A stretch of DNA of 31,643 nucleotides from a virus. Of the stretch, positions 3,375-30,210 are shown piece after piece (within the stretch, counting starts at the first letter, position 1; every line of letters begins with the position of its first letter). Position numbers and translations under genes: made by a program. The DNA lies in the IMG/VR virus record IMGVR_UViG_3300013010_000042, positions 1 to 31,643 of that record. The stretch is one strand, 5' to 3'. The notes under the pieces were generated by a model, which searched no databases, was not told the origin of the DNA, and saw only the letters and a list, made by a program, of their open reading frames with translations.

Positions 3375-3827
3375 TTATTTCTGAGGGTTTACGTGCACAC
3401 GTTCTTTCCTGATCGGAAGTTCAGGGTCGTCTTCTGGACGACGCATCACGTAGAAGATAGATGGGTTCTGGTCTGGGTCGAATGCGACCACAGCCTTGTT
3501 CTCCTCCATCTTAAGCAACCAACTCTGAAGCCGGTGTGCTTCCTCAACCGTGAGGGATAAGCCTCGCCTCTGGCGGGCGAGTAGGCGAAGCATCCTGACC
3601 GGGTATGACTTGAGGTCTTTCCCGCTGAGGCTCCAAGGAATCTCATCCTGGTACCGCTCTTTAGGATCGACCAGTCCGGCTCGGTGTAGTGCTACCGACA
3701 CCGCTGATCGGGTGACCTGATACCCAGTCGTGTCTGTGATACGGGTTGCTATCTCCTGATGGGTGAGCCCTTGTTTGCTTAGTGCCAGTAGTTCATCACT
3801 GTTTGGTAGTATTTGTGGACGAGACAT
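3375..3827 (-). CDS. HTH DNA-binding phage regulator
   Basis: A 150-residue protein with an N-terminal helix-turn-helix at about residues 15-50 (LALSKQGLTHQEIATRI ... VTRSAVSVALHRAGL). A basic stretch (RMLRLLARQRRGL) and a C-terminal domain with VVAFDPDQNPSIFYV follow. The same architecture is common in actinobacteriophages as an uncharacterised DNA-binding protein. Its place next to attP and the divergent integrase, with its own terminator, is where a lysogeny regulator or repressor would sit; that role is inferred. ATG 3827 has AGGAAGGG upstream. Candidate binding sites in the 256-bp divergent gap are an inverted AATGTAAC pair and a 10-bp palindrome. Confidence 0.75.
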   Translation of the reverse strand: MSRPQILPNSDELLALSKQGLTHQEIATRITDTTGYQVTRSAVSVALHRAGLVDPKERYQDEIPWSLSGKDLKSYPVRMLRLLARQRRGLSLTVEEAHRLQSWLLKMEENKAVVAFDPDQNPSIFYVMRRPEDDPELPIRKERVHVNPQK

Positions 3828-14204: not shown

Positions 14205-15140
14205 TCAGGCGATACTCGAAGACGAACGGATCTGGTAAAGCGCGTCGTCTCGGTAGACCGAGTGGCCGAGAAGTCCGTACCACCCGATGCTGCGGTAGCG
14301 CATCAGGGAATCGACCACGGGCCCAATCACCACTCCGGGCTCAACAGCCACGGCTTCCGCCAAGGCTTGCTTGCCCACAATGAAGGTCGTGTAAACCTTG
14401 CCCGCACCGGCACCGTCAGGGGTGACAGGCACGCGGGGAGTCTCGATGAAAACGGCACCGTGCAAGACGCCAACGATTCCGTTAAGCGGCTTGTCAACGT
14501 TGCGCTCGGTGTACTTGTTGAGGTCATCGAATGAGCCTCCACCAGTTTCGGCACGAAGGTCATGAGCCACCTCGGGGTGGATCATGGCCGTGTACAGCGA
14601 GCCCTCACGGGGCACGGCATTGTTGGTTCGCAACTTTGCCACCACTTTGCGAACATCAGCAGCGGTAATCACGTCCTCGGCAGCAACTTCCCCGTTTGCC
14701 GTGGGAAGTGTTGCACCGCCACTGCCGTACAGGAGTTGAGTGCCACCCAGGAGTGTGTTACCAACTACCACATCAAGGCTGTCTGCCATGTTGTAGGCGA
14801 TGATGTCGGCCACTGCTGGATCGACATCCGCGAATGCGAACTCGTTCAACTTGCGGGTCCGAAGCACGGAGCGCCCACGCTCGTTGAGCGTCACCGAAAC
14901 GGTAGACACGTCGGGCATAGCCGTCGCATCCGGGTCAACGTTCTCATCCAGCGTTGCCGTCGTGGGTGCTAGATCGTTGTACAGGCTAAACACCACGGAC
15001 GAGCCGGGCATTGCCTGCTGCACCGGGCGCTTGTCAGCAAGCGAACGGAGCAAGGGTTGGCTGCGGAGTTCAAACTCCACGTAGCGGTCATAGGCTGCCT
15101 TTACAAGGCCAGCCAATGCAGTTGTGTCCGTGTTCGCCAC
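14205..15140 (-). CDS. Major capsid protein, N4-gp56 family
   Basis: A 311-residue coat protein. The opening ALAGLVKAAYDRYVEFELRSQPL is followed by GSSVVFSLYNDLAPTTATLDE, the LNERGRSVLRTRKL segment, and TAMIHPEVAHDLRAETG. Near the C-terminus are RYRSIGWYGLLGHSVY and the end YQIRSSSSIA. This layout matches the N4-gp56 type of HK97-fold capsid proteins, found in many short-tailed phages. The start is GTG 15140 with GGAGGTGAT upstream. It directly follows the scaffold gene and is followed by a stem-loop, as is usual for a highly expressed coat gene. The family call is by recognition, without a search. Confidence 0.85.
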   Translation of the reverse strand: MANTDTTALAGLVKAAYDRYVEFELRSQPLLRSLADKRPVQQAMPGSSVVFSLYNDLAPTTATLDENVDPDATAMPDVSTVSVTLNERGRSVLRTRKLNEFAFADVDPAVADIIAYNMADSLDVVVGNTLLGGTQLLYGSGGATLPTANGEVAAEDVITAADVRKVVAKLRTNNAVPREGSLYTAMIHPEVAHDLRAETGGGSFDDLNKYTERNVDKPLNGIVGVLHGAVFIETPRVPVTPDGAGAGKVYTTFIVGKQALAEAVAVEPGVVIGPVVDSLMRYRSIGWYGLLGHSVYRDDALYQIRSSSSIA

Positions 15141-15175: not shown

Positions 15176-15670
15176 CTAGAAAGCGGCGGGGCCGCCCTCA
15201 GAACCGAAGAGAACTTTGTTGAGTTCCTCCGGGCTGCGGGCACTCTGAATGAGTGCCGCTAGTTGGCCTGGGTCGCCGTTGAACTGGCTGCCAGACTGTT
15301 GCACCTGCCCGTTTTGTGAATACCCACTCGTGTCTATTTGTGGAGCGGAAGTTTCGGCTTCATCAGTGTCGCCTTCCACCTGTGTCGCTCCACCGAACAC
15401 ATCTGCGTACTCGTTGATCCACGCTGCTACGTCCTCATCGGAGGTAACGTCTTCGGGAACGAAACGGGCAATCTTCGGGTTGAGACCCTTCGCGGTGAGC
15501 ACGTCTCGGACGCTGCGTTCACGAGTCTGTGTGTTAATTGCAGACAACTGCTCTTGCAGTTCTTTAATCTGCTTCTCCTTCGATCTGTTCTCCTTGCGGA
15601 GTTGACGAAGGACTGTAGACCCATCATCGTCGTAATCGTATTCGTCGTTGTCGTACTCGTTGCCAGACAT
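15176..15670 (-). CDS. Capsid scaffolding protein
   Basis: A 164-residue acidic protein. An Asp/Tyr-rich N-terminus (NEYDNDEYDYDDDG) leads to a coiled coil at about 20-50 (LRQLRKENRSKEKQIKELQEQL). A compact helical part follows (VRDVLTAKGLNPKIARFVPED). The disordered Gln/Ser/Gly-rich tail ends in SARSPEELNKVLFGSEGG. This is the standard layout of phage scaffolds, lying immediately upstream of the coat gene. AGGGAGTG precedes ATG 15670, and the shared 14-bp GTTTAAAC motif lies 15 bases upstream. The scaffold would organise coat assembly and leave before or during packaging. Confidence 0.85.
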   Translation of the reverse strand: MSGNEYDNDEYDYDDDGSTVLRQLRKENRSKEKQIKELQEQLSAINTQTRERSVRDVLTAKGLNPKIARFVPEDVTSDEDVAAWINEYADVFGGATQVEGDTDEAETSAPQIDTSGYSQNGQVQQSGSQFNGDPGQLAALIQSARSPEELNKVLFGSEGGPAAF

Positions 15671-15861: not shown

Positions 15862-17082
15862 CTAGTAGGAGGTGTTACCGCCGAGAGTTCCCTGGAAGGC
15901 ACCCGACTGGCCAGAGAATCTGGCCCGTTCCTGGGATTGAAGTTTGCGAACCTTGTCACGGTTCTCCTTGTTGTAGCCGAACTCGCCCTCCACGACATCC
16001 TCATCAGTGAGGTCGTCGATTCCTTCCAGGGCAGAAAGCCGCCTAGTGGAATCAGCGAGGGCACCAGCCCTCTGGAAGGCAGGCCGGAGAGCCTGCTCAT
16101 TGCCGCCAGTCATCTGCCCAATCTGCTCACTGAGAGAGCGGCCAATCGTCAACCCTGACTGCTCGGCCGTGCGGGCAGTAATACCGGCAGACACCCTCTT
16201 CTCGATGTCGCCAATGGCCGTGTCAGCGTCCAACACGTACCCGTACAGGTCACCGATACTGGCCCCGTACAGGCGCTGCATTGACTCCACGACCAGTGGG
16301 TCTGCGTTGTCCACGACGCGCTGCCCCTGCTCCAAGCGAGCATCCACCTCAGCAGCAGATACGTCTTGGGAGATCAACCCAGCCAGGTAGTCCCTGGACT
16401 GAAAGCCTGCACTCATGCCACGTATCCGCATACGTGTAGCAATCGCGTCCTCAGTGGCCAAGTACTCCGCCTCGGAAAGCATGTTCAAACCGTTCTTAGT
16501 CCGTGCCAGGTTCCCCTTGAAGCGTTCCTGATAGATCTTGTTCTCACGTAACTTCACGGCAATGACTTGAGTGTTATCTCCCCACTCTTCAATGAGACTC
16601 GCAACAGACCCCGTAAGTTCCTTGAGACCGAAACGGTCCAGTAGGTCAGACAGAAAGACAGCGGCATTCGCCTTGTCGCGGTCAGTGGGTCCACCACCGC
16701 TCCAGCCGGGGATAGCGAACTGTCTCCAGTTCCCCAACTCGTCCTTACCCCACTCGTAGCCCTCGGCGGGAGGACCGGGAGGGTTATCAGTTACCGGGTT
16801 ATTCGGTGCCAGTGGGTCTCCGATACCGACGTTCACGTCATCGTCAGGCAGATTAGAGTTATCGCCACCGTCAGGTGGAGTGACGGGTGCAGGTGCAGGT
16901 GCAGGCTTAGATGTCGTCGTAGCACGCAGGGCCTCGTTCATTGCCTTACGGTCGGCTGCACCCAGGTTGCCGTCCTTATTGGCGTTCTGCCTAAGTTGCT
17001 GGATGATCTCCCGCTTCTCCGCCCGAGAAGCACCCCCAGTGGACTGAACCCGCGCGATAGCGCGCTCTAGATCTGTAGCCAC
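15862..17082 (-). CDS. Helical virion protein, candidate internal/ejection protein A
   Basis: A 406-residue protein. The helical basic N-terminus (ATDLERAIARVQSTGGASRAEKREIIQQL) is followed by a Pro/Ala/Asp-rich linker at about 60-115. A short GYEWGKDELGNWRQF segment then leads to a long helical body. That body contains FLSDLLDRFGLKELTGSVAS ... YQERFKGNLARTKNGLNML ... EAEYLATEDAIATRM. The YQERFKGN...R...GL..LSEAEYL pattern recurs in many marine and actinobacterial phage virion proteins of unknown function. It lies between the giant protein block and the scaffold. The start at GTG 17082 follows GAGG and the previous stop (17084). The structural role is likely; ejection is inferred. Confidence 0.6.
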   Translation of the reverse strand: MATDLERAIARVQSTGGASRAEKREIIQQLRQNANKDGNLGAADRKAMNEALRATTTSKPAPAPAPVTPPDGGDNSNLPDDDVNVGIGDPLAPNNPVTDNPPGPPAEGYEWGKDELGNWRQFAIPGWSGGGPTDRDKANAAVFLSDLLDRFGLKELTGSVASLIEEWGDNTQVIAVKLRENKIYQERFKGNLARTKNGLNMLSEAEYLATEDAIATRMRIRGMSAGFQSRDYLAGLISQDVSAAEVDARLEQGQRVVDNADPLVVESMQRLYGASIGDLYGYVLDADTAIGDIEKRVSAGITARTAEQSGLTIGRSLSEQIGQMTGGNEQALRPAFQRAGALADSTRRLSALEGIDDLTDEDVVEGEFGYNKENRDKVRKLQSQERARFSGQSGAFQGTLGGNTSY

Positions 17083-17083
17083 C

Positions 17084-18079
17084 TTAAACCTCAAATCCGA
17101 AAGTCTTCAACAGATCCCTGCCCACAGTGGCGTACTGTTCGTACGCATTGTTTGTCTTCTGCCAGTCGGGATCTTCACGGATCATTTTTTCAAACTCCCA
17201 ACCCGAGACGGGTCGGTTCTTCCCAGTCGCAGGGTCCACGTACTCCATGGCCTTACGGACAAGACGATGATCTAATCCGACCTCGTTCTGGTTCAACTCC
17301 AGCATTCGCGCAGTTGCGTTACGGAAGTCCAGTGAGATGTCAGTGACATCCAATCCTTCCTTGAATCGGTCAGCGTAAGCACCGTACTTAGATGAGAACA
17401 CTTGCTCTCTCATGTTCTGCTTGATCTGGTCAATGGTTGTCGCACCTGATTGCAAGTCACGCAGATACTTCTGCATAGCGTTTGCTCCGACCTGGACACC
17501 GTTCGCTGCAAACCAGCGAAGCAACGTGTCCTGACTATTGCCAGCGTCACCGCCCAGTTCAGTCATCGCATACGGGTCAGTGTCAGAAGGCTTCTCTTCA
17601 ACAATCAAATACTGAGACAGCCTCCGGTCAATCTCCGTCTTATCGAACTGACCAGACAGAAAACCTTCATCGGCGTACACCAGGGCGAGAGCCATCTTGC
17701 GGGCCTCTTTAGGATCAAGAGTCTTGCCCATCTTCCCCACAGCGATAGTGTTGATCTCTCGCTCCAGGTTGGCGAGGTTCTGTTTAAAGTCCTGGTTATT
17801 CTCCCGGTAGCGGGCAAGGTCGGCACTGATCTCAGAGGACGGGCGCTGCCCGAACTCTGTATCGTCGAGAAGTTTCTTAAACTCCCGGTAGATCTCACGC
17901 TCGTCGATCCGTCCTTTAGCGAGACGGTTACCCAACTTCTTGATGATGTCTTTGATCTCCGGGTGCATCCGTATCAGTCGGACAGCGAAACCTGCCTCTT
18001 CCAACACGTCACGCACTGAGTCAATGTTGTCAGCCACGTCCTTCTTGGCGTTTCCCTTTTCATCCTTGGCTTCAGCCAT
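17084..18079 (-). CDS. Helical virion protein, candidate internal/ejection protein B
   Basis: A 331-residue, mostly helical, charged protein. The N-terminus MAEAKDEKGNAKKDVADNID precedes MHPEIKDIIKKLGNRLAKGRI. A central region has DTLLRWFAANGVQVGANAMQ. A conserved-looking C-terminal block has YADRFKEGLDVTDISLDF and KNRPVSGWEFEKMIREDPDW ... LLKTFGFEV. That block resembles segments of large structural proteins in actinobacterial and uncultured marine phages. ATG 18079 overlaps the preceding stop by 8 bp; the longer frame from ATG 18097 has no ribosome site. Function unknown; position suggests an internal virion protein acting with the giant protein. Confidence 0.6.
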   Translation of the reverse strand: MAEAKDEKGNAKKDVADNIDSVRDVLEEAGFAVRLIRMHPEIKDIIKKLGNRLAKGRIDEREIYREFKKLLDDTEFGQRPSSEISADLARYRENNQDFKQNLANLEREINTIAVGKMGKTLDPKEARKMALALVYADEGFLSGQFDKTEIDRRLSQYLIVEEKPSDTDPYAMTELGGDAGNSQDTLLRWFAANGVQVGANAMQKYLRDLQSGATTIDQIKQNMREQVFSSKYGAYADRFKEGLDVTDISLDFRNATARMLELNQNEVGLDHRLVRKAMEYVDPATGKNRPVSGWEFEKMIREDPDWQKTNNAYEQYATVGRDLLKTFGFEV

Positions 18080-18998
18080 TGAAGACGCCCTTCTCATTCA
18101 AGTATTGCTGGAACATGCCAACCATTTGGCCGCCCACCTGAAACTCCGCGAAGTCGTCGTTCTTCCGCAGTTGGTCAGCCAAGACCTGCTCCCGACCAGC
18201 CGAACTCATGCCCGACTGTTGGACGACACTGCCGCCCTCCATAGACACCACTGTCGGGTTGGCGCGCTCCGCCGCGTTCAAGGCAGAAAAGTACTGCTCA
18301 AACTCTTTATCGTTGACTGTTCGACCGACCATCTGTAGGGCCAGGGTGTCGATAACCGACCGGGCATCTTCACGGTTCGATAACACGATGGTGGAGTTAG
18401 ATCCACCACCACCACCACCGTAACTACCAGAACCACTACCCGATCCATCGTCAGCCAACGTGGCTGCACCACGACTCAGGTCACTCATCAACAGTTCAAA
18501 GGGCGAGATCCTAGCCCCATCAGTGCTGGCATAGGCAGACAGTTCTACATAGTCTGCGTACAGGGAGTGGCCACTACGGCCCAGTTCAGCACCAGCCCGT
18601 TCCCACAACTTCTGCTCACCCAGCGACTGCTGGCGGTAAAAGCCAATAGTTCCCGCCTGAGACTTAGACACCTGATCGTAGGTGTAGTACTCGTACGAGA
18701 AGACGCCCTGCCCGCCAGTGCGGGGCATCGTTTTCAGTACCTCAGAGTACGGCGAGGCTACAGATGACAGGCCCTGCCCACGGACCTCGTACGCCGTGGG
18801 CGCGGAACGCTGGTTCTCAAAAGACAGGGCGTTGGTGTAGGAGTCCTTCAAGCCTCCAAGGCCACCACCACCTGACACGTTCTGCGTACCACTGTAAGTG
18901 CCGCTGGGGACTCTCCCCGTCATATTTGTTTGACCAGCCGCTCTAGCGGCATCCATCCGTGCCTGTCGTGCGATTTGATCCGCCGTGAAGTTGGCCAT
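18072..18998 (-). CDS. Gly/Ser-rich virion protein
   Basis: A 308-residue protein. The N-terminus ANFTADQIARQARMDAARAA leads to a Gly-rich stretch (SGGGGLGGL). An aromatic, helical centre follows (SYEYYTYDQVSKSQAGTIGF; ELGRSGHSLYADYVELSAYA). A Gly/Ser linker at about 185-200 precedes a helical C-terminus (QVGGQMVGMFQQYLNEKGVF). It directly follows the giant gene with AGGGA before its ATG. I do not recognise the family firmly; the linkers and location fit a modular structural protein of the same ejection block. Confidence 0.58.
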   Translation of the reverse strand: MANFTADQIARQARMDAARAAGQTNMTGRVPSGTYSGTQNVSGGGGLGGLKDSYTNALSFENQRSAPTAYEVRGQGLSSVASPYSEVLKTMPRTGGQGVFSYEYYTYDQVSKSQAGTIGFYRQQSLGEQKLWERAGAELGRSGHSLYADYVELSAYASTDGARISPFELLMSDLSRGAATLADDGSGSGSGSYGGGGGGSNSTIVLSNREDARSVIDTLALQMVGRTVNDKEFEQYFSALNAAERANPTVVSMEGGSVVQQSGMSSAGREQVLADQLRKNDDFAEFQVGGQMVGMFQQYLNEKGVFNG

Positions 18999-19004
18999 AG
19001 ATCC

Positions 19005-22000
19005 CTACTTTCCAGGTAGTTGCCAGCCCTGAGATAGAGCGCTAGTCATAATTTCCAAGATGCGCTCCCATTGGTCATTCCCAGGGAACCTCTGCAACTC
19101 TGTTGTCAATGCGCCATCCCATGCTTCTTTAAGAGTGGCGCGTTCAGCGTCATAGTTCGGGTTGGCGCTTTGATTGATTACCAGTTGATCTAGTTCGCTT
19201 TTGGCCCACGCATATCCCTCATATGCCCGCAGCACTTCCGGCCCCAGGCCGTTCCCGTCAGTCCCGATTGCTTCCGCTACCGTGCGAATCTCTTCCACAC
19301 GGTCAGCCCAGTACTCAGGCTGTTCGCGTTCATTGACGTAAAGGCGAGTGGACAGGCCATTCATGTCTGCGCGAGTACGCCATGACGCCAACGTGGCGTC
19401 CATGGATGACTGGCGAATCTTCCGCTGCTCCTCAGTGGGAGCGGCATCAACATCCGCCTGCATGTACCGCCTACCCAACTGGTAGTCGATGCGGGCTTCC
19501 TGGGTTGCCAGATCTTTCACCTGATCAATGAGCGTCTTAGGTGTGCGAACGTCAAACATGTTCAACACACGCATAGACTTCGTGGTGACTTCACCAGTGT
19601 TCGGTCCAAAAATGGACACGCCAATCGGGTACTCGGTCATCAGGTCGCTGTGACGAATAGCGAACTCTGCGTTACCCTCCAGCGGCTCCATGTAGCCCAT
19701 CTCCGCAGCCTCTGAGCGAGACAAGGAGTAAATGCCGAGACCTGGGTTTTCCGAAGTCCATTTTTCTATCCACTTCCAGTACCCGTCTATGCCGTCCTCG
19801 GATTCCATGGCTTGCTTCATTCCTTTAAGGAATGAGGGGCGCATGCCCGTGGAACCCAAGTCCCGGCCCAACTTGGAAACAGTGTCTTCCATTAATTGAG
19901 GTGCGGATGGGGCGAAAAGTCCCGTGACTATCATTCCAAAAACAACGGCAAGAGAAGTACTACGAAGTTCGTTGGCGTATGCCTCCGCCTTCACGGGGTC
20001 CTTGGAGTCAGCCATGCTGAGTCCTCGCCCCTGTGCCTGCATCATCATCGCGGCCTTCATGGTCGCGTTGTATGACAGAGTCCCGGGAAGTTCTATGCCA
20101 AGGGCCGCAGGTAGCAGGCCAAGGAACGCCTTGTCGATAATCGGCGGTAAGGCACCAGGAAGGCCCTCAATAACCTCACCAAGAATGCCGTCCAATGGAC
20201 CGTCAAGGTTCAGATCCTTATCTGCACCGATGGCACCGAACAGTTGGCGATCGATATCGCCAAAGATGTCATCGGGTCCACCGATTGCCCGAAGGACCGG
20301 ACGGTAAACAATTGACGCCCACGGTGATGCCAAGGTAGGCATCCACGAGTCGGGGTCGGCAGATGGCGACAGCCACTGCACTTTGCCACCGATCATGAAC
20401 CCGGCAGTGCTGCCGAACATCGGCAGCCACCGCGATAAGAACTCCAGTCCAGCGGCTGAACCGGGGTACACGAAGTAGTCCTGACCGTATTCGTCCGTGT
20501 GGCTGAAGCCGGATTCATTAGTCGCCTCCCAGATAAGTGAGGCCCGCCAGAACGCTATGGGGTCATTCTTGGCCACCCGATACATGCGGCGACCAAAGTC
20601 CTCAATGGCCCGATAGAACCGGGCGACGTTTCGGACACGGTACGCAGCACGTGACCTAACCGCTGGATTATCGACGTATGACATTGTGAGTGCGTAAGCA
20701 CGTTCGCTGGACTGCTTTGATGCCCAGGAACGTGCAGCATCTTCACCGAACTGTTTCGCATAGACCTCTTCCAAAGCACGGAACGTTTTACGTGATTCAA
20801 GGTAGTTCGCTTTAAAGATCGGTTCACGAGTCATGCGAGCCAAGGACCGACCCATGGCTGACCAGCCCTTGTCGATAAGTGCGTTAACACTGCCCATGTC
20901 GGCTGGAACAAGAAACGACTCGCCTGACACTGCCACAGTGTGATACGGAGGTTTAAACGTCCCTGAAAGAAAGTCCTCCATTGCAACCACTGGATCACCA
21001 GTGGCTTCATCAATGACGGAGTATCCCTTCTTCTCTGGGTTCCAGAGGGCGTCCAGCAACTCCTTGTTGAACTTACCCTCTGGGGTAGTGAAAGTCCCTG
21101 AAGCATCCTTGAAGCCTTTCTGCACAAACAGACGCTCATCAGCCGGTTCGTACAGACGAAAACGTTCCCGGTACACGGGCCACATCTCGTGGCTCTTAAT
21201 GTAGTTAAGAACCTCATCTTCGATCTTCCGCATATTTGCGGCATCAGATGAGCCTCTACGGTTCTCCGCAGCCCACCAGCGTTCCAGTCGCTGCAAGATT
21301 GCCTGGCCCCTGGGGCCATCGGACGTGACGTTGTGCAGGGCGCGAACAGCACCCTCCGCCTGGGGTGGTGTGACCCTGCCGACTACGGTTCGCTCGGACA
21401 CGTACTGGGCTGTCTGGTCAACCCTGACACGCCGGTACCACTTGCCACCAACCTTAACCAAAGGTTGAAGATCTCCGTCTGCTGGCATGAGACTGTCAGC
21501 CAAGTGCCGTGACGTTTCCGCAGCCTTCTGCTCGTACGCTTCGCCCGTCGTAGACTTAAGCAAATCGTCCATGTCTCTCAGGATCTCCTGTTGACGCGGG
21601 CTCAAGTCTTCAATCTCAGCACCGCGACGTAAACGCACAGCGATACCGCGAGCCTCTGGGTCTTTAACCAGAAGTAGACGTTGACGTGCCAATGCCTTCA
21701 TCTGCAAAGCCACCACGCCGTCGCGGCCAAGTTTTGCAGCCGCAGCCCGCTCAGCGGGTGAGGTCATGGGCATGAAGATGGCTGCCGCTAGGCGTGCCCG
21801 CAGAGTGTTCTCCCTGCCAGCCAGGCCAGCATTGTTTGACAACTTAACCGCAAGAGTCATCCGTGCCGTGTTGACGATACCTAACTTCCGTGGCTTCAGC
21901 CCCGCCCTCTCCAGTTTGGCTAGACGCTCCGCAGCCCTCGCCTCAACGTTCTCGGCAGCGTCAATGACCGATTGATCAGTGGCCCTCTTTCGAACGTCGT

Positions 22001-25000
22001 CGGCTTTCTTCGTGGCCGCTTCCAGTTCACCCTTGGCTTTCTGAACATCCTGATCAAAGCGTGCTGTCGCGCTACGCACAATGGTGGAGATACGGCGGCC
22101 CTCGGAGAATGCACCCATCTTTCCGCCAGTGATGACATAGAGAACCATGTCCTCAAGTCCGTTACGTAACTGAAACCGTGGCCCCGCAAGGGTGCCAAAC
22201 GTCCACAGGTCTGTGACAGTCTGACCAACACGGTTATTGACCAGCAGCGCGTTCATGTACGAACGTCGTGCGGCGAAGTTATCCAAGGCACCGAAATTAG
22301 GCATGGCCAGGGCATCATTGGTTTGCGACAACCAGACAGCACCCTGACGGGTACTGCCACCCACGTTCACTTCACCAGGGTTGGAAAGGTTAGCCTCATC
22401 CATCCAAGACTGCTTGGCTATCTTCACCTGTCTTTTCATGTCTGCCCGCAGCCCTTTCGCCACCGGCTTCCATGCGTCTTGCGCTTTCTCTACGGCCCGC
22501 TCTTGGGCCGCCCTTGCCAATAAAGGTGCATTCGCTGAGTTCAAGCGATCCAGTTCCAGGCGTGCCGCAACAAGGTCCTGGTACACGGGATGCTCGGAAA
22601 TGGCAGCATCTAGGATCAGTTGTCCTTGCGCGTCCGCGTCGCGCATTGCGCCACCGAAACGATCGTACTGATCCGCTGCGTACCGCTCGTTCATTCGAGT
22701 GCCGGAGACACCCTTGAGTAGTTCATCAAACTTTGTCGCCCCAGTGGAATCCAGCAACACCCGGTCAAGGCCGGAGGCTCGACCGTAAGTGCGAACCATT
22801 CCAGCGAAAGCCAGTTCGCGTTGAGCCTGATTCATCTTCGCCCACTCGGCGCGGAACATGGAGGCCATGGGCCGGTTCACGCCCGCAAGGCGCATCATCT
22901 GATAGATCTTGCCAGCGTCCCTGGCATCGAGAGTGACAATACCGCCACGAGTGTCAGGCATCCGTGCCCACACTGCCGCGAAGCGGTCAGCGGCACGAGA
23001 CAGTGCCAAGGATGCGTCATCACCACGGAGCACACCTTTCTTAGCCCACCCTGACCGGGATACGCCAAGGGCATTGCGCCACTTGGTTGCACGCTCGCCG
23101 TTCCCAGACAGCACGGAATCCAGTGCCTGCCCTGCCACGGTGCGCTTCGGGGCACCGGCAGCATCAACAGACCAGTCACCCACCTCGCGGGCCAGACGGT
23201 CTACGAGGGCGTCATCAGCCATCACGGAGGCGAGGCGAGTTGACCGTTCACTGGAAGTCAAGGTCACCCAGTCCGAACCCAGCACGTCATCCAGCACAGG
23301 AGTGGATCGTGCCAGATATTTGGTTATGTCAGCAGCGCCACGGACCTGACCAATGGTCTGCTTGAGCACCGTCGTTGCCGCACTCTGGTGAGGAACGTAG
23401 ACACGGTTAGTGCGCTTAGCGACCTGTGCTTGTGCCTGGCTCGCCGCAGCCGCAATAGCGTCCTCGGCGGTAGACGGCACCTGCCCTGACCGCTGACTAC
23501 GCTTACCACGGCCCTCGCGGTTACCTGTCCCCTTCTTGCCACGGGCACCGTAGCCTTCAGGCTTCGGGCGCATCTTTGATGCTTTACCGGCAGCGATCTT
23601 CTCCACAGACTCCATGGACATGTAGAAGTCTCGCGCCGAATCGGCGTCAAAGATCCCGTGCTTTGTGAACAGTCGAATAGTCTCATCGTTCGCGTACTTC
23701 TTCGACTGGCTTACAAGAGTGGTGTACTTGCGACCGTAGGCAACGGTGTCACCGGCATCGTCCAAAGCCTTCAAGGTTTGAAGTTCTTTACCGAACCAGT
23801 TGTACCAGTTCTGGACCTTCGCTCGTGTAAACGCCTTCTCCACGTTCACCGTCTTACCGAGAAGCCAGAAACCGTACTTGGCTCCCTTGAGTGCGACACC
23901 GGCACCAAACGCAGCATTGAGAGGGTCCAACGTCAGCATTGCCGTCGTGTTCGTAACGTCACGAATACCAGTAGCCCACGCAGAAGTGGGGTCAATGAAT
24001 GGCATGGCCCGAACGAGGGCATTGCCCGGATTGCCTTGGTCCGCGAAGGCAATCTTCGTGTACAGGTCAGAGTAGGATGTGTTGCCGCCAATGGAGGCGT
24101 CCATCATCCCCTGCTGGATTAGACTCCAAGCCTCGGGATTGTTCTCATACTTGGCGAAAGTCTTCTCAAGCAGGTCATCATCGCCCCTGGCGTAGCCTTC
24201 GTAAACATCGGCCAGTACGTCTACAGCGAAGTCACCGTACTCGTTGCGAAGGTCAGACATTTCTGCCTGGTTCAGTGTGCCCTTGTCTGCCTCACCGTAA
24301 GACCCATCCACGAGTGTAGAGAGAGGCGCTGCCGGGGAGAGACCTAGCAGAGTGTTGCCGATTCCGCCAGCGAAGTCACCGTTCCCGAAGTCGCTGAATG
24401 CCTCCATCTGCCGGTTAGCCATTGCCGTAGCGAACTGCACCATCGTGTCGTTGCCGAGCATGAGAAAGTTGAACACTGGGGCAGCCAGCGTGCCAAGCAT
24501 GGCAATGCCCTGTGAAGTCCAGTTCTCTCCATTGTCATCCGCTTCAGATCCACTGTTCAAAATGTCCTGAAAGAACATTGCCACCACGCCCTGATCACCT
24601 TCATCCTCAACGGAAGCGATGATCTGGCGTGCAGCAAGGAAGCCTTGCTGTGATCCTTTCGAGGCAGCGACACGAGTGAAAGCAACCTCAGCAACATTCT
24701 TCGCCGCCAGGATACGGGCGACGGAACCCATTTCACTCGGAGCCAGGCCGGAAACAGCGGCCTTGGCGAGGATAGCCGGGTTCAACTCGGCCAGACTGGC
24801 CGCATACTCTTCGGCATCCATCGAGCCATGACGCGCAATCATGTCCGAATTGATACGGGCAGCGTCCTTGTTTGCTACCGAATCCTTGAAAACAATCCCG
24901 AAAGTGTTACCGCTGTTGAGCGTTCCTACGAGGGTGCGCTCTTTATCTGTCATCAAGTCGGGAGCATTGGCCCAGTATTCGCCATCATTTGTGACGACCG

Positions 25001-25406
25001 AACGGCCATCCTTCAATCCCTGAATGAACTCAGGAAAAGAGGAGAACGAGTCGGGGGAGTAGGCTGCTCCACGTCGAGTCTCGTCATAGTTCATTGGGCC
25101 GACAGGCCGATTGGCGTAGAACTGTTGGACCAGTTGAGCCTGACGTTCCTGAGAGTCCTGATATTCCTGAAAAGTAGTTGCAGGAGCGGTGCGCTCAAAG
25201 GCACGACGACGCCCCATCGGGGCATCCGTGTCAGCGTAAGGAGAGTCCACCACCTCGTTTGGGGACATCGGCTCCGGGTAACGGATCGTGTTAGTGGGTG
25301 TCTCCGCAGCGCCAGGGTTCTTCCGAGACGGGCGAGCATTGATGCTACCGACGTTACCTAGATAGTTTGTGTTATCGGTCTGATCATTGTTCTCGGGAGA
25401 AGCCAT
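19005..25406 (-). CDS. Giant 2133-residue virion protein
   Basis: One uninterrupted ORF covers 20% of the window. Visible regions: a disordered N-terminus (1-60); hydrophobic segments near 300-320 (IAMLGTLAAPVFNFLMLG) and 490-520 (LTLDPLNAAFGAGVALKGA). A basic Gly/Arg linker lies near 620 (GNREGRGKRSQRSGQ). A helical block near 1055 has TLAGPRFQLRNGLEDMVLYV; the block near 1595-1650 has FGRRMYRVAKNDPIAFWRAS and DEYGQDYFVYPGS. A Gly/hydrophobic segment with membrane-active character lies near 1740-1840. The centre resembles giant structural proteins of some actinobacterial podoviruses, by recall only. It lies between portal and scaffold, unlike a tape measure. I see no lysozyme, protease or polymerase motif. 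A DNA-ejection role is inferred. ATG 25406 has only a weak ribosome site, so coupling to the upstream gene is likely. Confidence 0.7.
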   Translation of the reverse strand: MASPENNDQTDNTNYLGNVGSINARPSRKNPGAAETPTNTIRYPEPMSPNEVVDSPYADTDAPMGRRRAFERTAPATTFQEYQDSQERQAQLVQQFYANRPVGPMNYDETRRGAAYSPDSFSSFPEFIQGLKDGRSVVTNDGEYWANAPDLMTDKERTLVGTLNSGNTFGIVFKDSVANKDAARINSDMIARHGSMDAEEYAASLAELNPAILAKAAVSGLAPSEMGSVARILAAKNVAEVAFTRVAASKGSQQGFLAARQIIASVEDEGDQGVVAMFFQDILNSGSEADDNGENWTSQGIAMLGTLAAPVFNFLMLGNDTMVQFATAMANRQMEAFSDFGNGDFAGGIGNTLLGLSPAAPLSTLVDGSYGEADKGTLNQAEMSDLRNEYGDFAVDVLADVYEGYARGDDDLLEKTFAKYENNPEAWSLIQQGMMDASIGGNTSYSDLYTKIAFADQGNPGNALVRAMPFIDPTSAWATGIRDVTNTTAMLTLDPLNAAFGAGVALKGAKYGFWLLGKTVNVEKAFTRAKVQNWYNWFGKELQTLKALDDAGDTVAYGRKYTTLVSQSKKYANDETIRLFTKHGIFDADSARDFYMSMESVEKIAAGKASKMRPKPEGYGARGKKGTGNREGRGKRSQRSGQVPSTAEDAIAAAASQAQAQVAKRTNRVYVPHQSAATTVLKQTIGQVRGAADITKYLARSTPVLDDVLGSDWVTLTSSERSTRLASVMADDALVDRLAREVGDWSVDAAGAPKRTVAGQALDSVLSGNGERATKWRNALGVSRSGWAKKGVLRGDDASLALSRAADRFAAVWARMPDTRGGIVTLDARDAGKIYQMMRLAGVNRPMASMFRAEWAKMNQAQRELAFAGMVRTYGRASGLDRVLLDSTGATKFDELLKGVSGTRMNERYAADQYDRFGGAMRDADAQGQLILDAAISEHPVYQDLVAARLELDRLNSANAPLLARAAQERAVEKAQDAWKPVAKGLRADMKRQVKIAKQSWMDEANLSNPGEVNVGGSTRQGAVWLSQTNDALAMPNFGALDNFAARRSYMNALLVNNRVGQTVTDLWTFGTLAGPRFQLRNGLEDMVLYVITGGKMGAFSEGRRISTIVRSATARFDQDVQKAKGELEAATKKADDVRKRATDQSVIDAAENVEARAAERLAKLERAGLKPRKLGIVNTARMTLAVKLSNNAGLAGRENTLRARLAAAIFMPMTSPAERAAAAKLGRDGVVALQMKALARQRLLLVKDPEARGIAVRLRRGAEIEDLSPRQQEILRDMDDLLKSTTGEAYEQKAAETSRHLADSLMPADGDLQPLVKVGGKWYRRVRVDQTAQYVSERTVVGRVTPPQAEGAVRALHNVTSDGPRGQAILQRLERWWAAENRRGSSDAANMRKIEDEVLNYIKSHEMWPVYRERFRLYEPADERLFVQKGFKDASGTFTTPEGKFNKELLDALWNPEKKGYSVIDEATGDPVVAMEDFLSGTFKPPYHTVAVSGESFLVPADMGSVNALIDKGWSAMGRSLARMTREPIFKANYLESRKTFRALEEVYAKQFGEDAARSWASKQSSERAYALTMSYVDNPAVRSRAAYRVRNVARFYRAIEDFGRRMYRVAKNDPIAFWRASLIWEATNESGFSHTDEYGQDYFVYPGSAAGLEFLSRWLPMFGSTAGFMIGGKVQWLSPSADPDSWMPTLASPWASIVYRPVLRAIGGPDDIFGDIDRQLFGAIGADKDLNLDGPLDGILGEVIEGLPGALPPIIDKAFLGLLPAALGIELPGTLSYNATMKAAMMMQAQGRGLSMADSKDPVKAEAYANELRSTSLAVVFGMIVTGLFAPSAPQLMEDTVSKLGRDLGSTGMRPSFLKGMKQAMESEDGIDGYWKWIEKWTSENPGLGIYSLSRSEAAEMGYMEPLEGNAEFAIRHSDLMTEYPIGVSIFGPNTGEVTTKSMRVLNMFDVRTPKTLIDQVKDLATQEARIDYQLGRRYMQADVDAAPTEEQRKIRQSSMDATLASWRTRADMNGLSTRLYVNEREQPEYWADRVEEIRTVAEAIGTDGNGLGPEVLRAYEGYAWAKSELDQLVINQSANPNYDAERATLKEAWDGALTTELQRFPGNDQWERILEIMTSALSQGWQLPGK

Positions 25407-25411
25407 GAGGG

Positions 25412-25825
25412 TTAGAGACCTTTCGATGTAAGGAGGTTGGCGATGTACTCCAACTCCCCGGTCTCATCACCTGCCGTCGCAATCCGGTTAAACAGTTGCG
25501 CGACACGAGACGGGGGAGCGGATAAGTCCTGGCCAGGGCCAGGGCCGAAAGCGGCACCAGCCGTTACTGGCTCAGCGGGTCGTTCAGAAGGCGCGCTCAA
25601 TGGTGTGAATGCGACAGGTTTGCGAGGCTCAGTCCCAGAGGAGTTCATCGGTGCACCCGACTGAATATCCCTAAAGTCTTTTCTCCCCCCGTACTCGAAG
25701 CCACCCACATCCTGCACGGACTGACCGTCAATAGGTCCACCATCCGTGCGCTTAGACATTGATCCGGGGCCACTCACCGGGGAGGGTCGGCCAGGTTTCC
25801 GATATCCGCCATGTCCATTGGCCAT
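25412..25825 (-). CDS. Small disordered head-associated protein
   Basis: A 137-residue Gly/Pro/Ser-rich protein starting MANGHGGYRKPGRPSPVSGP, with SKRTDGGPIDGQSVQDVGGF following. A short helical C-terminus ends in RVAQLFNRIATAGDETGELE and YIANLLTSKGL. The HGGYRKP..P.PVSGPG..S.RTDGGP opening is a recurrent signature of small proteins next to portal genes in actinobacterial and marine phages. The start was set at ATG 25825, which overlaps the previous stop as TAATG, rather than an ATG at 25840 lacking that coupling. Function unknown. Confidence 0.68.
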   Translation of the reverse strand: MANGHGGYRKPGRPSPVSGPGSMSKRTDGGPIDGQSVQDVGGFEYGGRKDFRDIQSGAPMNSSGTEPRKPVAFTPLSAPSERPAEPVTAGAAFGPGPGQDLSAPPSRVAQLFNRIATAGDETGELEYIANLLTSKGL

Positions 25826-26145
25826 TACTCGCCCCCCCACTCATCCCCGGAGTGGTTCTCCTCGTTGTCACCAGAGCATTCGTCACATTCGCACTCCTCA
25901 TCACCAGACCCACTGAGCAGCGACTGCAAGGCTGACAGTGACGTATCCAATCTGTCGATTTCGTCATCGTCGGGAACAGCCTCATATTCGGACGTGTCTT
26001 TCAGTAACTGTTTCCATCCACGATTCGCCTGAAGCATGATGTCGTTCATTGAGTCAGGCGAGTAAGGCATACCGGCTGCATGTATCGACAACTGAATACC
26101 TTGCCACTTGATCTGAAGAGCGATAGCAGTGTCTTGTTCAGCCAT
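25825..26145 (-). CDS. Small acidic protein downstream of portal
   Basis: A 106-residue protein. The helical first half (IALQIKWQGIQLSIHAAGM ... MLQANRGWKQLLKDTSEYE) is followed by a very acidic, disordered tail with a CECDEC cluster and many Asp/Glu/Ser/Gly residues. AAGGA precedes ATG 26145. It lies between portal and the disordered head protein and is coupled to the latter. The Cys cluster could bind metal, and the acidic tail could mimic DNA or act in assembly; neither is shown. Confidence 0.6.
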   Translation of the reverse strand: MAEQDTAIALQIKWQGIQLSIHAAGMPYSPDSMNDIMLQANRGWKQLLKDTSEYEAVPDDDEIDRLDTSLSALQSLLSGSGDEECECDECSGDNEENHSGDEWGGE

Positions 26146-26158
26146 GGCGTGTCCTTAA

Positions 26159-27997
26159 CTAGATGGGCAGGCGTCGAGTCACCCCGGCCTGTAAATTGGG
26201 GCGACCGCTACCCGACAGGGACGCTAAAAGCGTCTGCATGTCGGGGCGACCACCAGGAGCCATTCCGGCCTGACCGGATGCCACCCCTTGCATGAGGCCC
26301 GTTCCGTCGTTTAAACCAGACAGAGCAGCGCCCTCCGGGGACATACCTTCTTCTAGGGAGCCTTCTAGACCAGGCTCGGCACCAGGAGGTTCCGCGCCGG
26401 AGGGCGCTGCTGGCTCTTCAGGAGCGAAGGCTTCCGCCACCACATCCTCAATAGATCGGCCTTTCTGCCGACCAATAATGATCTGCGAAAGCCGAGAAAG
26501 AATGTCGCCCGGATCTTGACCGGCCTGTGCGAGAACCGGGATGGCTTGGGCGTAGCCTGCCACCGCCTGCTTCAACGCATCACGCATCTCCTCGATGTCA
26601 ACCTTCGACTCTTCCTCCATTGCGTCAAGAGCGAATGGCATCTGAGAGCGGAGGAAGTCACGGGAAATCAGTTTGTCGCCACGTGCCTGCAACCCGAACA
26701 CGAGCGCACGGTTAGGGTCCAGCCCAGCCATCAGTCCGTACTGCACGTCACACGTGTAGTCGCCCTTGATGTCCTTCATGGGGCGGTAACGGATCTCATA
26801 CGGGGTTCCGTTCGCGTTACCGCGAACAGTCTTGGATTCCTCACCCCACACCAACTCATCCACCATCAACGCTTTACGTACAAGGTTGGCGAAGCCGGTA
26901 GCAAACATGGCCTGAGCGGTACGCACCTGAGTGTCGAAGCCACTCATCAACGCCTGTACGCCACGGCCAGTAACGACTGACCCGTCGATGTTTCCGCCAC
27001 GAGCCTCCGGGTAACGTGAACCGTTACGCAATTCGGCATCAAGGATTCCCTGCTGCGCGAATGCTGACTGTGGCACCTCAATAGGCACACGACGTACCTG
27101 CTGGCCATTCGATGTACGAATGACAGCATCAGGACCGAGCGCTAGTTCCTGAGCGTCTGGCGGTAGAACGATAGGAGCCTGTACTGCTTTCTGCGCCGCC
27201 TCAAGTGACAGCAGCGCGAAACGGGCCTTAGCCACCTGTACAGCCAGAACGTCATCGAACTGTCCGTGAGACTCGTCATCGACTCCAGGACGTTGAATCC
27301 ATTCGGCAAGACATTCGCCAATAGGATTCGGGATAGATGAAAGGATGGCCCCTTCACGACCGGGGAGGAAGATCACATCCTCCAATGCGCTGTGGTAGCG
27401 CAACACTTCAACAAGATCGGAACCTGACCCTGGGACACTCTTCTGAAAGAGAGATATTTTGTCCGGGTAGGAGGCGATTAATTCGTCGCGGGTTTTAAAG
27501 AATGAGAAAAATACTGCCGACAGGCATCCCCATCGGTCAAAGATGGGGTAGGCGCCCCGTGAGTCTAGGAAGTGAATACGGGGGAGTCGCGCGTCATCGT
27601 CAATCTCTACCATTCCGATGGTGAAACCGTACGTAACATAGCGATCAGCAGCCGTATACATCTGACGCTGGACATCAGAGTGAAGTATGTAGCCGTTGAC
27701 GATCTTTGTGCGCTTCTCCGCGAAGTCGCGGGCAGAGTCAGAGACGCTGGAAGACGAAGAACAGTTGAAAGACGGAAGAGGCGCAATAACTTCGGACAGG
27801 TCGCGTGCCGCAATGTCCACCATGTTACCGACGATGCCCGAGTCGAACGGCCCTTCAGGGAACAGGGCGGGAAATACGTCGCGCATACGGCCCTGGCGTA
27901 CAGCCAGAACCTTGTTCATGCGGCCATCTCTAGCCGAATACTTAGTTTTCGTTCGCTCCCATAGGGAGCGCAGTTCCTTCAACTCGATTGGATTCAT
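26159..27997 (-). CDS. Portal protein
   Basis: A 612-residue portal. Segments typical of phage portals are the helical opening LKELRSLWERTKTKYSARDGR, then VVDIAARDLSEVIAPLPSF-like and DRYVTYGFTIGMVEIDDDAR strands. The HFLDSRGAYPIFDRWG wing follows, with a stem/crown helix region (AMFATGFANLVRKALMVDEL). The Glu/Pro/Gly-rich disordered C-terminus is about 110 residues long. It forms the ring through which DNA enters and leaves the capsid and anchors the tail. The ATG overlaps the TerL stop as ATGA, the usual terminase-portal pairing. A GTTTAAAC site lies in the tail-coding part. Confidence 0.85.
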   Translation of the reverse strand: MNPIELKELRSLWERTKTKYSARDGRMNKVLAVRQGRMRDVFPALFPEGPFDSGIVGNMVDIAARDLSEVIAPLPSFNCSSSSSVSDSARDFAEKRTKIVNGYILHSDVQRQMYTAADRYVTYGFTIGMVEIDDDARLPRIHFLDSRGAYPIFDRWGCLSAVFFSFFKTRDELIASYPDKISLFQKSVPGSGSDLVEVLRYHSALEDVIFLPGREGAILSSIPNPIGECLAEWIQRPGVDDESHGQFDDVLAVQVAKARFALLSLEAAQKAVQAPIVLPPDAQELALGPDAVIRTSNGQQVRRVPIEVPQSAFAQQGILDAELRNGSRYPEARGGNIDGSVVTGRGVQALMSGFDTQVRTAQAMFATGFANLVRKALMVDELVWGEESKTVRGNANGTPYEIRYRPMKDIKGDYTCDVQYGLMAGLDPNRALVFGLQARGDKLISRDFLRSQMPFALDAMEEESKVDIEEMRDALKQAVAGYAQAIPVLAQAGQDPGDILSRLSQIIIGRQKGRSIEDVVAEAFAPEEPAAPSGAEPPGAEPGLEGSLEEGMSPEGAALSGLNDGTGLMQGVASGQAGMAPGGRPDMQTLLASLSGSGRPNLQAGVTRRLPI

Positions 27998-29895
27998 GCC
28001 AGCCTTCCAGTAACGGGCATGAGCGCCCCATTCATTTCTAGTTCAGTCAGATTCACGCTGGTCTGCTGCGCCCTATCCCATTCCGTAAGGAACGGGTTCA
28101 CTGCATGTGTGCGACCAAACGTGCTGTGCGCGATCACGCGGTCCCTGCACGCCAACTCCGCGAACCACATCGCCATAACGCAGTCAGTCTTTTGGGTCTT
28201 CGATATACTTGGACCCCACGTGACCAACTGCTCGACCAGAGCCTTCACACCTTCAGAGAACTGGGTGGAAGGAAGTTCAAGCAACTGAGTGCCAGATTCA
28301 TATCCACTCAACAGCATTGTCATAGATGCGACACCGAAGTCGGCATCATGCTTGTTGTTTCCAGTGAAGTGGCCCTGGATGCGTACACCTCGCGTAGCGA
28401 GGTACTGGTTAACGTCAGCGTCATGAACCAAGAAGCCCTGAAAACCATTCTTCTCGATACGCCACTCAGCGATCCCGTAATGATCAGTCCACTCTTTGAT
28501 CAAGTCACGGATCTCATCGGGCCTAGCACCAGCCTTATTGAACACATTCAACACGTGTCGTTTCTGGTTCATTGGGTCTAGTGCCAAAACCACGGCAGCG
28601 GTATGCCCAGACGTTGCCGGGTCAAGACCAGCCACCACCACAGTGCCTTCCATTCCGCGCCCCTTGCGTACCGGGTTCACGTTCGAGGGCATCAGTCCAG
28701 TTGTTCGTGCGCCATTGATGCACGCCGCCACGGCGGCGGGCTGAAAAATGGCTTCCTCGTTGACCTGGGATTGCATGTAGACCATTGACCAAGTACGGGC
28801 AGCCATACGATTACGTTTCTTACTTAACCGTTCGCCATTCCATTTGACATACAGGCCGTCTTCGTCAGGAACAGTGTCGTCCCCTTTAGCGCCAATCTCC
28901 ATCGTGTTAGATGCAGGCCACAACGTGACCCAATCCTCGGCCTTGTCGTGGAACTCCAGGACTGCTGGCATGGCCAGGTATGACCACGGTGACTCCTCAT
29001 CGGGATACCGATCAGGATTCTGCAACTCCAGGTACAGATCCTTGGACGCTAACCGCGTCCCCACCACGAGCAAACTCCCCGAGGGGGAGAGACGTGAGAT
29101 CACCTCCGACTGAATCCACTCAATCTGCTTCTCGTAGTCATGCGCGTTCGTTCCATCAATCACGTCATCGAGGATGATGAGGTCAGCACGGGCACCATAA
29201 ATATGTCCACGGATGCCAAGGGCTTGAACGGTGGGGTCTTTCTCCCCGGAGTCCCTGGCCTCACCTGAGACGTAAATGATGTCCTGGGTCCAGGAGGCGG
29301 AGCCGGAGGCGTAGCCGTTAGGGGGACCGAACGTGCGCTGCATCTTGGAATAGCGGTCGTGGGTCAGACGGTCCTTGATACCGAAAAGGAACTTCCGGGC
29401 CATCGTCTGTGTCTTGGAGACGATCATCACCCGGATATTCGGATCTTTGGCGATCCGGTAGGCCACATAGTTCATGGTGATCGAACTGGACTTACCGTGC
29501 TCGGGGGGCATGTTACATATCACGAGATCTTTCTCGCCCCGGCGGTACGTCATCGAGTCATGCAGCCAGGAAGGCTCCTGGCCCTCAATCATGTCCACGA
29601 CGTTCATCATGTGGGGGAAGACCCGATGGCCGAGATATGTCTCAGAGAACTCGGGAAACGCAATATCTGTGACTTTCTCGTGCTGCCATTCGTCCAGGCG
29701 CACGCTGCGGGCGCGGTCCATCTGAATGCAGAAGTCAGGGTCAGTGGCACGCCACGACTCATACGACTTAATCGAACGCCCAATAATTGAGACGGCATTC
29801 TTAACCGTGTGGCCCTGGGCCACCAGTTCCACCATGCGTTTCTTCGACTCAGCCACTGGACGCCTAGGGTCGCTCGCGGTCTTACCTTGAGCCAT
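27994..29895 (-). CDS. terL: Terminase large subunit
   Basis: A 633-residue packaging motor. The ATPase domain has Walker A MPPEHGKSS at about 129-137 and Walker B ADLIILDD at about 237-244. The RNase-H-like nuclease domain has D425 (VAGLDPATSG), E481 (RIEKNGFQ) and D519 region (NKHDADFG). The first ~60 residues form an extra helix-turn-helix-like module (KRMVELVAQGHTVKNAVSII ... YESWRATDPDF), as if a small-terminase DNA-binding domain were attached; no separate TerS gene is visible. It would cut and pump genome concatemers through the portal encoded just downstream. The ATG at 29895 has GGAAGG upstream. Confidence 0.92.
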   Translation of the reverse strand: MAQGKTASDPRRPVAESKKRMVELVAQGHTVKNAVSIIGRSIKSYESWRATDPDFCIQMDRARSVRLDEWQHEKVTDIAFPEFSETYLGHRVFPHMMNVVDMIEGQEPSWLHDSMTYRRGEKDLVICNMPPEHGKSSSITMNYVAYRIAKDPNIRVMIVSKTQTMARKFLFGIKDRLTHDRYSKMQRTFGPPNGYASGSASWTQDIIYVSGEARDSGEKDPTVQALGIRGHIYGARADLIILDDVIDGTNAHDYEKQIEWIQSEVISRLSPSGSLLVVGTRLASKDLYLELQNPDRYPDEESPWSYLAMPAVLEFHDKAEDWVTLWPASNTMEIGAKGDDTVPDEDGLYVKWNGERLSKKRNRMAARTWSMVYMQSQVNEEAIFQPAAVAACINGARTTGLMPSNVNPVRKGRGMEGTVVVAGLDPATSGHTAAVVLALDPMNQKRHVLNVFNKAGARPDEIRDLIKEWTDHYGIAEWRIEKNGFQGFLVHDADVNQYLATRGVRIQGHFTGNNKHDADFGVASMTMLLSGYESGTQLLELPSTQFSEGVKALVEQLVTWGPSISKTQKTDCVMAMWFAELACRDRVIAHSTFGRTHAVNPFLTEWDRAQQTSVNLTELEMNGALMPVTGRLA

Positions 29896-29930: not shown

Positions 29931-30197
29931 CTACCACTTGACTTTGTTCGCCCAGTAGGCGGCAGACATTTTTCCTTTGGCGATGTTCTTGGCGTGACGC
30001 GCCTTAAAGGCGGATTGACGCTTCGACGGCTGGCGGTCACCAGTCACGCCCTGCTGCCCAAATCGGATCGTCTTCACCTGCTCCCCGTCCTTGGCCACCA
30101 CTACATGAGACTTCGTAGGATGCTTGGGGGTTCGCTTGGGCTTGTTGTATCCGTCAACCCCGGCCCGCTCTAATCGTGGATCTTTGTCTTTAGGCAT
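29931..30197 (-). CDS. Small basic protein upstream of terminase
   Basis: An 88-residue, strongly basic protein: MPKDKDPRLERAGVDGYNKP, then TKSHVVVAKDGEQVKTIRFGQQGV, and the ending FKARHAKNIAKGKMSAAYWA. Proteins with this same start and end are frequent in marine phages, including those of cyanobacteria and Pelagibacter, with unknown role. As the first gene of the late operon, directly before TerL, it could bind nucleic acid or take part in packaging; that is inference. ATG 30197 is chosen because GGAG lies nine bases upstream; an ATG at 30206 abuts the same GGAG too closely. Confidence 0.78.
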   Translation of the reverse strand: MPKDKDPRLERAGVDGYNKPKRTPKHPTKSHVVVAKDGEQVKTIRFGQQGVTGDRQPSKRQSAFKARHAKNIAKGKMSAAYWANKVKW

Positions 30198-30210
30198 GAG
30201 TAACATCTCC

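What the first reader, a model, noticed from the sequence alone, without database searches (positions are those of the whole stretch)
19005..25406. Giant 2133-residue protein between portal and scaffold
One gene takes a fifth of the window. It sits in the head block, not in the tape-measure position, and has several hydrophobic segments, a basic linker and no enzyme motif I can recognise. Giant ORFs are known in a group of Microbacterium podoviruses; this may be a shorter relative with an ejection or genome-protecting role. With the three proteins after it, it forms a 9.5-kb block of undescribed virion proteins.
Basis: partly seen in the sequence, partly recalled or inferred. Interest (0 to 1): 0.65.

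Follow-up and report, generated by a model that had tools for sequence, protein, structure and literature searches.

The report
Giant cysteine-free phage ejection protein
A short-tailed virus of (probably) actinobacteria carries a 2133-residue protein without a single cysteine, which is most likely packed in the virus head and threaded into the bacterium ahead of the DNA as part of an entry machine shared by hundreds of environmental viruses and two isolated groups.

Summary
The gene is real: 19005-25406, minus strand, 2133 aa, between portal and scaffold. It belongs to a large family. Its nearest isolates' homologues are the 1764-aa protein of Planktophila phage LanE43-AprE7 (blastp 2e-38) and the 1635-1648-aa gp9/gp10 of Streptomyces podoviruses, Beephvirinae (hhalign 1e-12). 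At least 595 viral contigs match its core motif. Gene order is the same wherever it could be read: TerL, portal, ~140 aa, giant, 2-4 proteins, scaffold, N4-type capsid protein.

The telling feature is cysteine. The family has 0 in-frame Cys codons in 96,596 (1,811 and 7,009 in the other frames). Known ejected proteins share this (N4 gp50-52, T7 gp15/16, P22 gp7/16/20), while other virion proteins of the same phages mostly do not. In all seven Beephvirinae checked, the six-protein block holds one Cys, the catalytic one of an NlpC/P60 hydrolase. Between E7 and F5, near-identical phages of one host strain, this block is what is exchanged: it accounts for their published, unexplained '8 kbp island'.

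Best reading: the largest subunit of a DNA-ejection machine, working like T7 gp16 or the ejected N4 gp50, but with no detected homology to them. The polymerase reading is disfavoured. Virion presence was not tested.

The parts
19005..25406 (-). giant protein, 2133 aa, 0 Cys; proposed largest ejection protein
20463..20672 (-). residues 1579-1648, most conserved core (DNPxxR...RxYRAxEDFxRR...GxxYFxYP)
   Evidence: invariant columns of alignments A2 and A7
23487..23573 (-). basic, disordered linker, residues ~612-640; subgroup-specific
25412..25840 (-). 142-aa protein (phrog_8200), 0 Cys; an ORF of this size lies upstream of the giant in all 57 loci compared; E7/F5 exchange begins inside this gene
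18072..18998 (-). 308-aa block protein d1, 0 Cys (homologue of FlowerPower gp10)
17084..18097 (-). 337-aa block protein d2, 0 Cys; homologous to the C-terminal part of both the NlpC/P60 and the SLT protein of Beephvirinae, without the enzyme domains
15862..17094 (-). 410-aa block protein d3 (phrog_8424), 0 Cys
26159..27997 (-). portal protein (context)
27994..29895 (-). large terminase (context)
15176..15670 (-). scaffolding protein (context)
14205..15140 (-). major capsid protein, N4-gp56 family (context)

Best explanation
The giant protein is the largest subunit of a DNA-ejection machine. It is packed inside the capsid, probably near the portal. On infection it is threaded through the short tail in an unfolded or beads-on-a-string state together with its block partners (142, 308, 337, 410 aa). 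It then refolds in the host envelope, where the set forms or crosses the conduit through which the DNA enters. It works like T7 gp16 or the ejected N4 gp50, but no homology to them was found and it is probably not a polymerase. Shown: the family, its gene order, the near-total selection against cysteine, and block exchange between E7 and F5. Inferred: virion location, ejection, refolding, conduit role.
For: (1) Cysteine: 0 in 2133 aa, 17 expected from the other window proteins, P about 2.5e-8; 0 of 96,596 in-frame codons in the non-redundant family against 1,811 and 7,009 TGY in the other frames. By role per 1000 aa: ~140-aa neighbour 0.12, d1 0.15, d2 0.13, scaffold 1.0, MCP 1.6, TerL/portal 6.0, genes after MCP 9.8. 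(2) Benchmark: N4 gp50/51/52, T7 gp15/16, P22 gp7/16/20 and ICP2 gp6 all 0 Cys, T7 gp14 one; most other virion proteins of those phages contain Cys. (3) In 7 Beephvirinae the six-protein block has one Cys, Cys33 in DCSG of the NlpC/P60 protein. (4) Same gene order across relatives of a podovirus lineage (Abafar is podoviral by TEM). (5) Planktophila phages E7 and F5 are 96-98% identical on both sides of the block, but block proteins are 26% identical or unalignable. In P22, Sf6 gp16 or gp20 alone does not work, and exclusion-escape changes map to gp16 and gp20. (6) Wall-degrading or wall-binding domains sit in block proteins of some relatives. (7) Models mostly helical.
Against: No virion proteomics or structure exists for any member that I could find. 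Low cysteine also marks scaffold and capsid proteins (1.0-1.6 per 1000), so it is not exclusive to ejected proteins. No homology to a known ejection protein was found, and no known fold. Structure models are only moderate (pLDDT 66 and 71). The review read here reports ejection proteins from Gram-negative hosts (it lists mycobacteria among them) and none in phi29-like phages of Gram-positives, so the machine would have to suit another envelope.
Confidence: 0.8

Rival explanations
1. It is a virion-packaged RNA polymerase (as in N4 or phi14:2), ejected to transcribe early genes. A published analysis of Stenotrophomonas phage StenR_269 read a 2270-aa, cysteine-free, helical protein beside an N4-gp56 capsid gene this way.
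For: N4-type capsid protein, similar neighbourhood to N4 gp50, zero Cys as in gp50, precedent in PMC10747016.
Against: No invariant Lys and no aligned T7-type motif B or DxDxD motif in 55 members. hhalign to gp50 is noise. No polymerase among fold matches (inconclusive). Zero Cys also marks T7 gp15/16 and P22 gp7/16/20, which are not polymerases. Relatives encode sigma factors, which suggests use of host RNAP.
Confidence: 0.08
2. It is an internal core or genome-organising protein that stays in the capsid and is never ejected.
For: Gene sits between portal and scaffold; low Cys is shared, more weakly, by scaffold and capsid.
Against: The giants' Cys level is far below scaffold and capsid levels. 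The block is exchanged together while portal, scaffold and capsid stay 97-99% identical. PG hydrolases belong to the block in Beephvirinae.
Confidence: 0.08
3. It is a tape-measure, tail or receptor-binding protein.
For: Large helical protein; weak Foldseek rows to tape measures (E 0.02 or worse).
Against: Relatives are podoviruses; Abafar has a 16-nm tail. The gene lies before the capsid gene, not after tail-tube genes. External tail proteins contain Cys (N4 gp65, T7 gp12, phi14:2 g071/g086). Fibre-like genes are elsewhere.
Confidence: 0.03
4. It is an injected effector or toxin acting on the host rather than a conduit part.
For: Subgroup-specific N-terminal 200 residues and linker could carry extra functions.
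Against: The core is present in every relative with synteny and no enzyme domain is detected in libraries.
Confidence: 0.03

Closest known systems
Beephvirinae giant, gp9/gp10 (Streptomyces phages FlowerPower, Manuel, Immanuel3, Abafar), 1635-1648 aa, hypothetical protein
   Same: Homologous (hhalign E 1.4e-12 over 757 columns; Foldseek E 2.4e-7 to the Manuel protein); same gene order; 0 Cys
   Different: ~490 aa shorter; no blastp match to the window protein; NlpC/P60 and SLT proteins in the block; tRNA genes between block and scaffold
Planktophila phage LanE43-AprE7 giant, 1764 aa (OX376640; host 'Ca. Planktophila' LanE-43)
   Same: 25-28% identical, blastp 1.6e-38; same order; 0 Cys
   Different: ~370 aa shorter; two block proteins instead of three. 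Sister phage F5 carries a different 1711-aa giant, also 0 Cys
N4 gp50 (virion RNA polymerase, ejected)
   Same: Largest protein of the head/ejection gene block, 0 Cys, N4-gp56 type capsid
   Different: No sequence homology or polymerase motifs; 3500 aa; host Gram-negative
T7 gp16 / gp15 and P22 gp16 / gp20 / gp7
   Same: Podovirus ejection proteins, 0 Cys, exchanged as sets in P22
   Different: No detectable homology; placed after the capsid and tail genes; smaller
Microbacterium phage Akoni gp31 (cluster EK2, 4487 aa)
   Same: Giant, 0 Cys, next to the portal gene, podovirus of an actinobacterium
   Different: No homology detected; lies before the portal
StenR_269 2270-aa protein and Zobellviridae internal virion proteins (ICP2 gp6)
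   Same: Large, helical, 0 Cys; StenR_269 has an N4-gp56 capsid protein
   Different: Gram-negative hosts; homology to the StenR_269 protein not tested

Membership tests
Beephvirinae/Planktophila-phage giant family | sequence homology over the core | tested here: met
   blastp 1.6e-38 to E7; hhalign 97.7% probability, E 1.4e-12 to Beephvirinae, reversed-profile control negative
Beephvirinae/Planktophila-phage giant family | gene order TerL-portal-~140 aa-giant-block-scaffold-MCP | tested here: met
Podovirus ejection (internal virion) proteins | no or nearly no cysteine | tested here: met
   a correlate found here, not a formal definition
Podovirus ejection (internal virion) proteins | encoded with partner ejection proteins in one operon-like block | tested here: met
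Podovirus ejection (internal virion) proteins | sequence homology to T7, P22 or N4 ejection proteins | tested here: not met
   hhalign noise
Podovirus ejection (internal virion) proteins | present in virions and released into the host with the DNA | not testable with these tools
   needs proteomics and injection assays
N4-type virion RNA polymerase | T7-like catalytic motifs (two Asp, Lys of motif B) | tested here: not met
   no invariant Lys, no aligned K-x6-7-YG
N4-type virion RNA polymerase | single-subunit polymerase fold | tested here: inconclusive
   mostly helical model; no polymerase among fold matches, but long models hide single domains
crAss-like (phi14:2 g066) virion RNA polymerase | conserved DxDxD catalytic motif | tested here: not met
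   no aligned DxDxD in 55 members
Microbacterium cluster EK giant | homology to Akoni gp31 | tested here: not met
   hhalign E 0.18 and 0.66
Tape-measure protein | long-tailed virion and position after tail-tube genes | tested here: not met
   no tail-tube or tape-measure gene found in the window; gene lies before the capsid gene; relative Abafar is a podovirus

The most novel reading that the evidence does not exclude
This is a separate class of DNA-ejection machine of short-tailed phages adapted to actinobacterial envelopes, unrelated to the T7, P22 and N4 sets. It is exchanged as one cassette between phages of the same host, perhaps to escape superinfection exclusion or to meet a different inner receptor.
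Probability: 0.35. Interest if true: 0.75.

Novelty: new variant of a known kind. Interest (0 to 1): 0.6.

Why it matters
The molecular steps of podovirus DNA entry are known mainly from T7, P22 and N4 in Gram-negative cells. This finding points to a counterpart in phages of Streptomyces and of the abundant freshwater 'Ca. Nanopelagicales', with cultured phages (Abafar, Manuel, E7, F5) in which it can be tested. It offers an explanation for an unexplained 8-kb difference between two isolated phages. It also turns cysteine absence into a simple marker for ejected proteins, and suggests that cysteine-free giants should not be called RNA polymerases on that ground alone.

Tried and rejected
Homology to N4 gp50-52, T7 gp14-16, P22 gp7/16/20 and Akoni gp31: hhalign noise. 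PDB sequence search with profiles: nothing. Fold search: N half no match in BFVD at E <= 0.001 and only weak PDB rows; C half matched in BFVD six proteins at E <= 0.001, among them the Manuel homologue, the rest unnamed or uncharacterised phage proteins, and nothing in PDB at that level. Prophage or host search in genome contigs, twice, found no relative, so the host is unknown. Homology of the F5-type giants to the family: only weak signals (hhalign E 0.006-0.015), left open. Repeated cassette exchange: only one exchange (E7 against the F5-type backbone) is supported by the sampled contigs. Hydrophobic segments as a conserved membrane anchor: only one recurs, in under half of members. Scaffold in window: moderate profile support plus position. 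Genus-name literature search gave only unrelated papers.

Full report
WHAT IS THERE. The ORF 19005-25406 is on the minus strand, starts with ATG and encodes 2133 aa. The record is a linear virus contig without end repeats, 99.9% identical over shared parts to three other IMG/VR contigs, so the virus recurs across samples. Reading along the minus strand: TerL, portal, 106 aa, 142 aa, giant, 308, 337, 410 aa, scaffold, MCP, then small head and tail/fibre-like genes, a 625-aa protein and replication genes, with an integrase and a repressor. The MCP passes the NCBIfam cut-off for the N4-gp56 family.

RELATIVES. MCP, portal and TerL are closest to Streptomyces podoviruses of the subfamily Beephvirinae and to two records named ct2KA10. 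A giant gene lies in the same place: 1635-1648 aa in Beephvirinae, 1764 aa in OX376640. The window protein matches the latter at 1.6e-38, and the latter matches Immanuel3 at 6e-4. With a deep alignment the family matches Beephvirinae at E 1.4e-12 over 757 collinear columns, with a reversed-profile control at noise, and the model of the C half finds the Manuel protein by fold at 2.4e-7. Gene order was the same in the loci with enough flank. Abafar is a podovirus with a 16-nm tail.

CYSTEINE. The window protein has no Cys; 17 would be expected from the other proteins of the window, P about 2.5e-8. Across the non-redundant family there is no in-frame TGC/TGT in 96,596 codons, against 1,811 and 7,009 in the other two frames. 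Among all 151 family ORFs (247,049 aa) there are four Cys, all in truncated ORFs, two of them within 30 residues of a contig end. Cys per 1000 aa by role: ~140-aa neighbour 0.12, d1 0.15, d2 0.13, d3 0.61, scaffold 1.0, MCP 1.57, TerL/portal 5.98, genes after the MCP 9.81. Known ejection proteins behave alike: N4 gp50, gp51, gp52, T7 gp15, gp16 and P22 gp7, gp16, gp20 have none, T7 gp14 has one; most other virion proteins of the same phages, tail proteins included, contain Cys. ICP2 gp5 and gp6 have none; the phi14:2 virion polymerase has two in 2180 aa. In all seven Beephvirinae checked, the six-protein block (about 3,290 aa) has exactly one Cys: Cys33 in the DCSG motif of the NlpC/P60 protein, by established knowledge of that family the catalytic residue. 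Selection seems to remove every cysteine not needed for catalysis. The likely reason (inference) is that these proteins are unfolded and threaded through the tail. Cysteine absence in large podovirus proteins was noted before in StenR_269 and Zobellviridae and read as a sign of a virion polymerase (PMC10747016). The benchmark here suggests it marks ejection, not polymerase.

THE CASSETTE. OX376640 and OX376641 are Planktophila phages LanE43-AprE7 and AprF5, isolated on one strain; their description mentions an unexplained 8-kb island of hypothetical proteins without homologues in the other phage (PMC10202952). I find that the island is this block. Flanks are 96-98% identical; identity breaks at E7 8372, inside the 147-aa gene, and resumes at 16922, at the end of the last block gene. 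F5 has its own 1711-aa giant and 364- and 482-aa partners, all without Cys; the giants have no blastp match and the last partners are 26% identical. F5-type giants form a set of their own (27 ORFs, 39,536 aa, 0 Cys) whose homology to the family is suggestive at best. Sampled contigs support one exchange, with E7 as the exception on an F5-type backbone. The proteins therefore behave as a matched set, as in P22, where Sf6 gp16 or gp20 alone fails and mutations escaping SieA exclusion map to ejection proteins 16 and 20 (PMC10883804).

MECHANISM. Proposed: the giant and its partners are packaged near the portal; on adsorption they leave first through the tail, refold in the envelope and form the path for DNA. 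Wall hydrolases or LysM domains occur in block proteins of some relatives, but not in the window, whose 337-aa protein keeps only the part shared by both Beephvirinae hydrolases. The N4 polymerase model (beads on a string through a ~35 A channel) is the nearest described analogue. Shown: family, order, cysteine pattern, exchange. Inferred: location, threading, conduit.

AGAINST A POLYMERASE. Conserved charged residues form an Arg/Asp/Glu/Tyr cluster around residues 1579-1648; there is no invariant Lys and no aligned motif B or DxDxD. Models are mostly helical, with about 60 strand residues in the C half. No solved fold matched, which is inconclusive for single domains.

VERDICT. It is a new family doing a known kind of job, for phages of actinobacteria. 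Virion proteomics would settle it.

Noticed in passing
window 29931-30206 (-); L006 20119-20373: A 91-aa ORF (phrog_7595) is 82% identical to an E7 ORF, far above the capsid protein (53%), and sits before TerL here but after the MCP in E7.
   Followed up: no
window 4084-5121 (+), 3375-3827 (-): Integrase and repressor genes: the window virus looks temperate, while relatives such as Abafar are described as virulent; no related prophage was found in genome contigs.
   Followed up: partly
L005 12173-14767 (FlowerPower gp11, gp12): The NlpC/P60 and SLT proteins share a C-terminal domain, and both match the window 337-aa protein: two hydrolases on one apparent delivery domain.
   Followed up: partly
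L093 17984-31447 (Akoni gp31): The unexplained 4487-aa giant of Microbacterium cluster EK phages also has no cysteine, which suggests that it too is an ejected protein.
   Followed up: partly
L164 266-12201 (phi14:2 g066, g067): The crAss-like virion polymerase and its large neighbour are cysteine-poor (2 in 2180, 1 in 1797) but not cysteine-free.
   Followed up: no
alignment A10, about two members each: LysM, transglycosylase and endolysin-like domains are sporadically fused to block proteins of relatives.
   Followed up: no
L048 8336-13005: In one contig the giant is split into two ORFs of 727 and 778 aa; frameshift, sequencing error or true split not examined.
   Followed up: no
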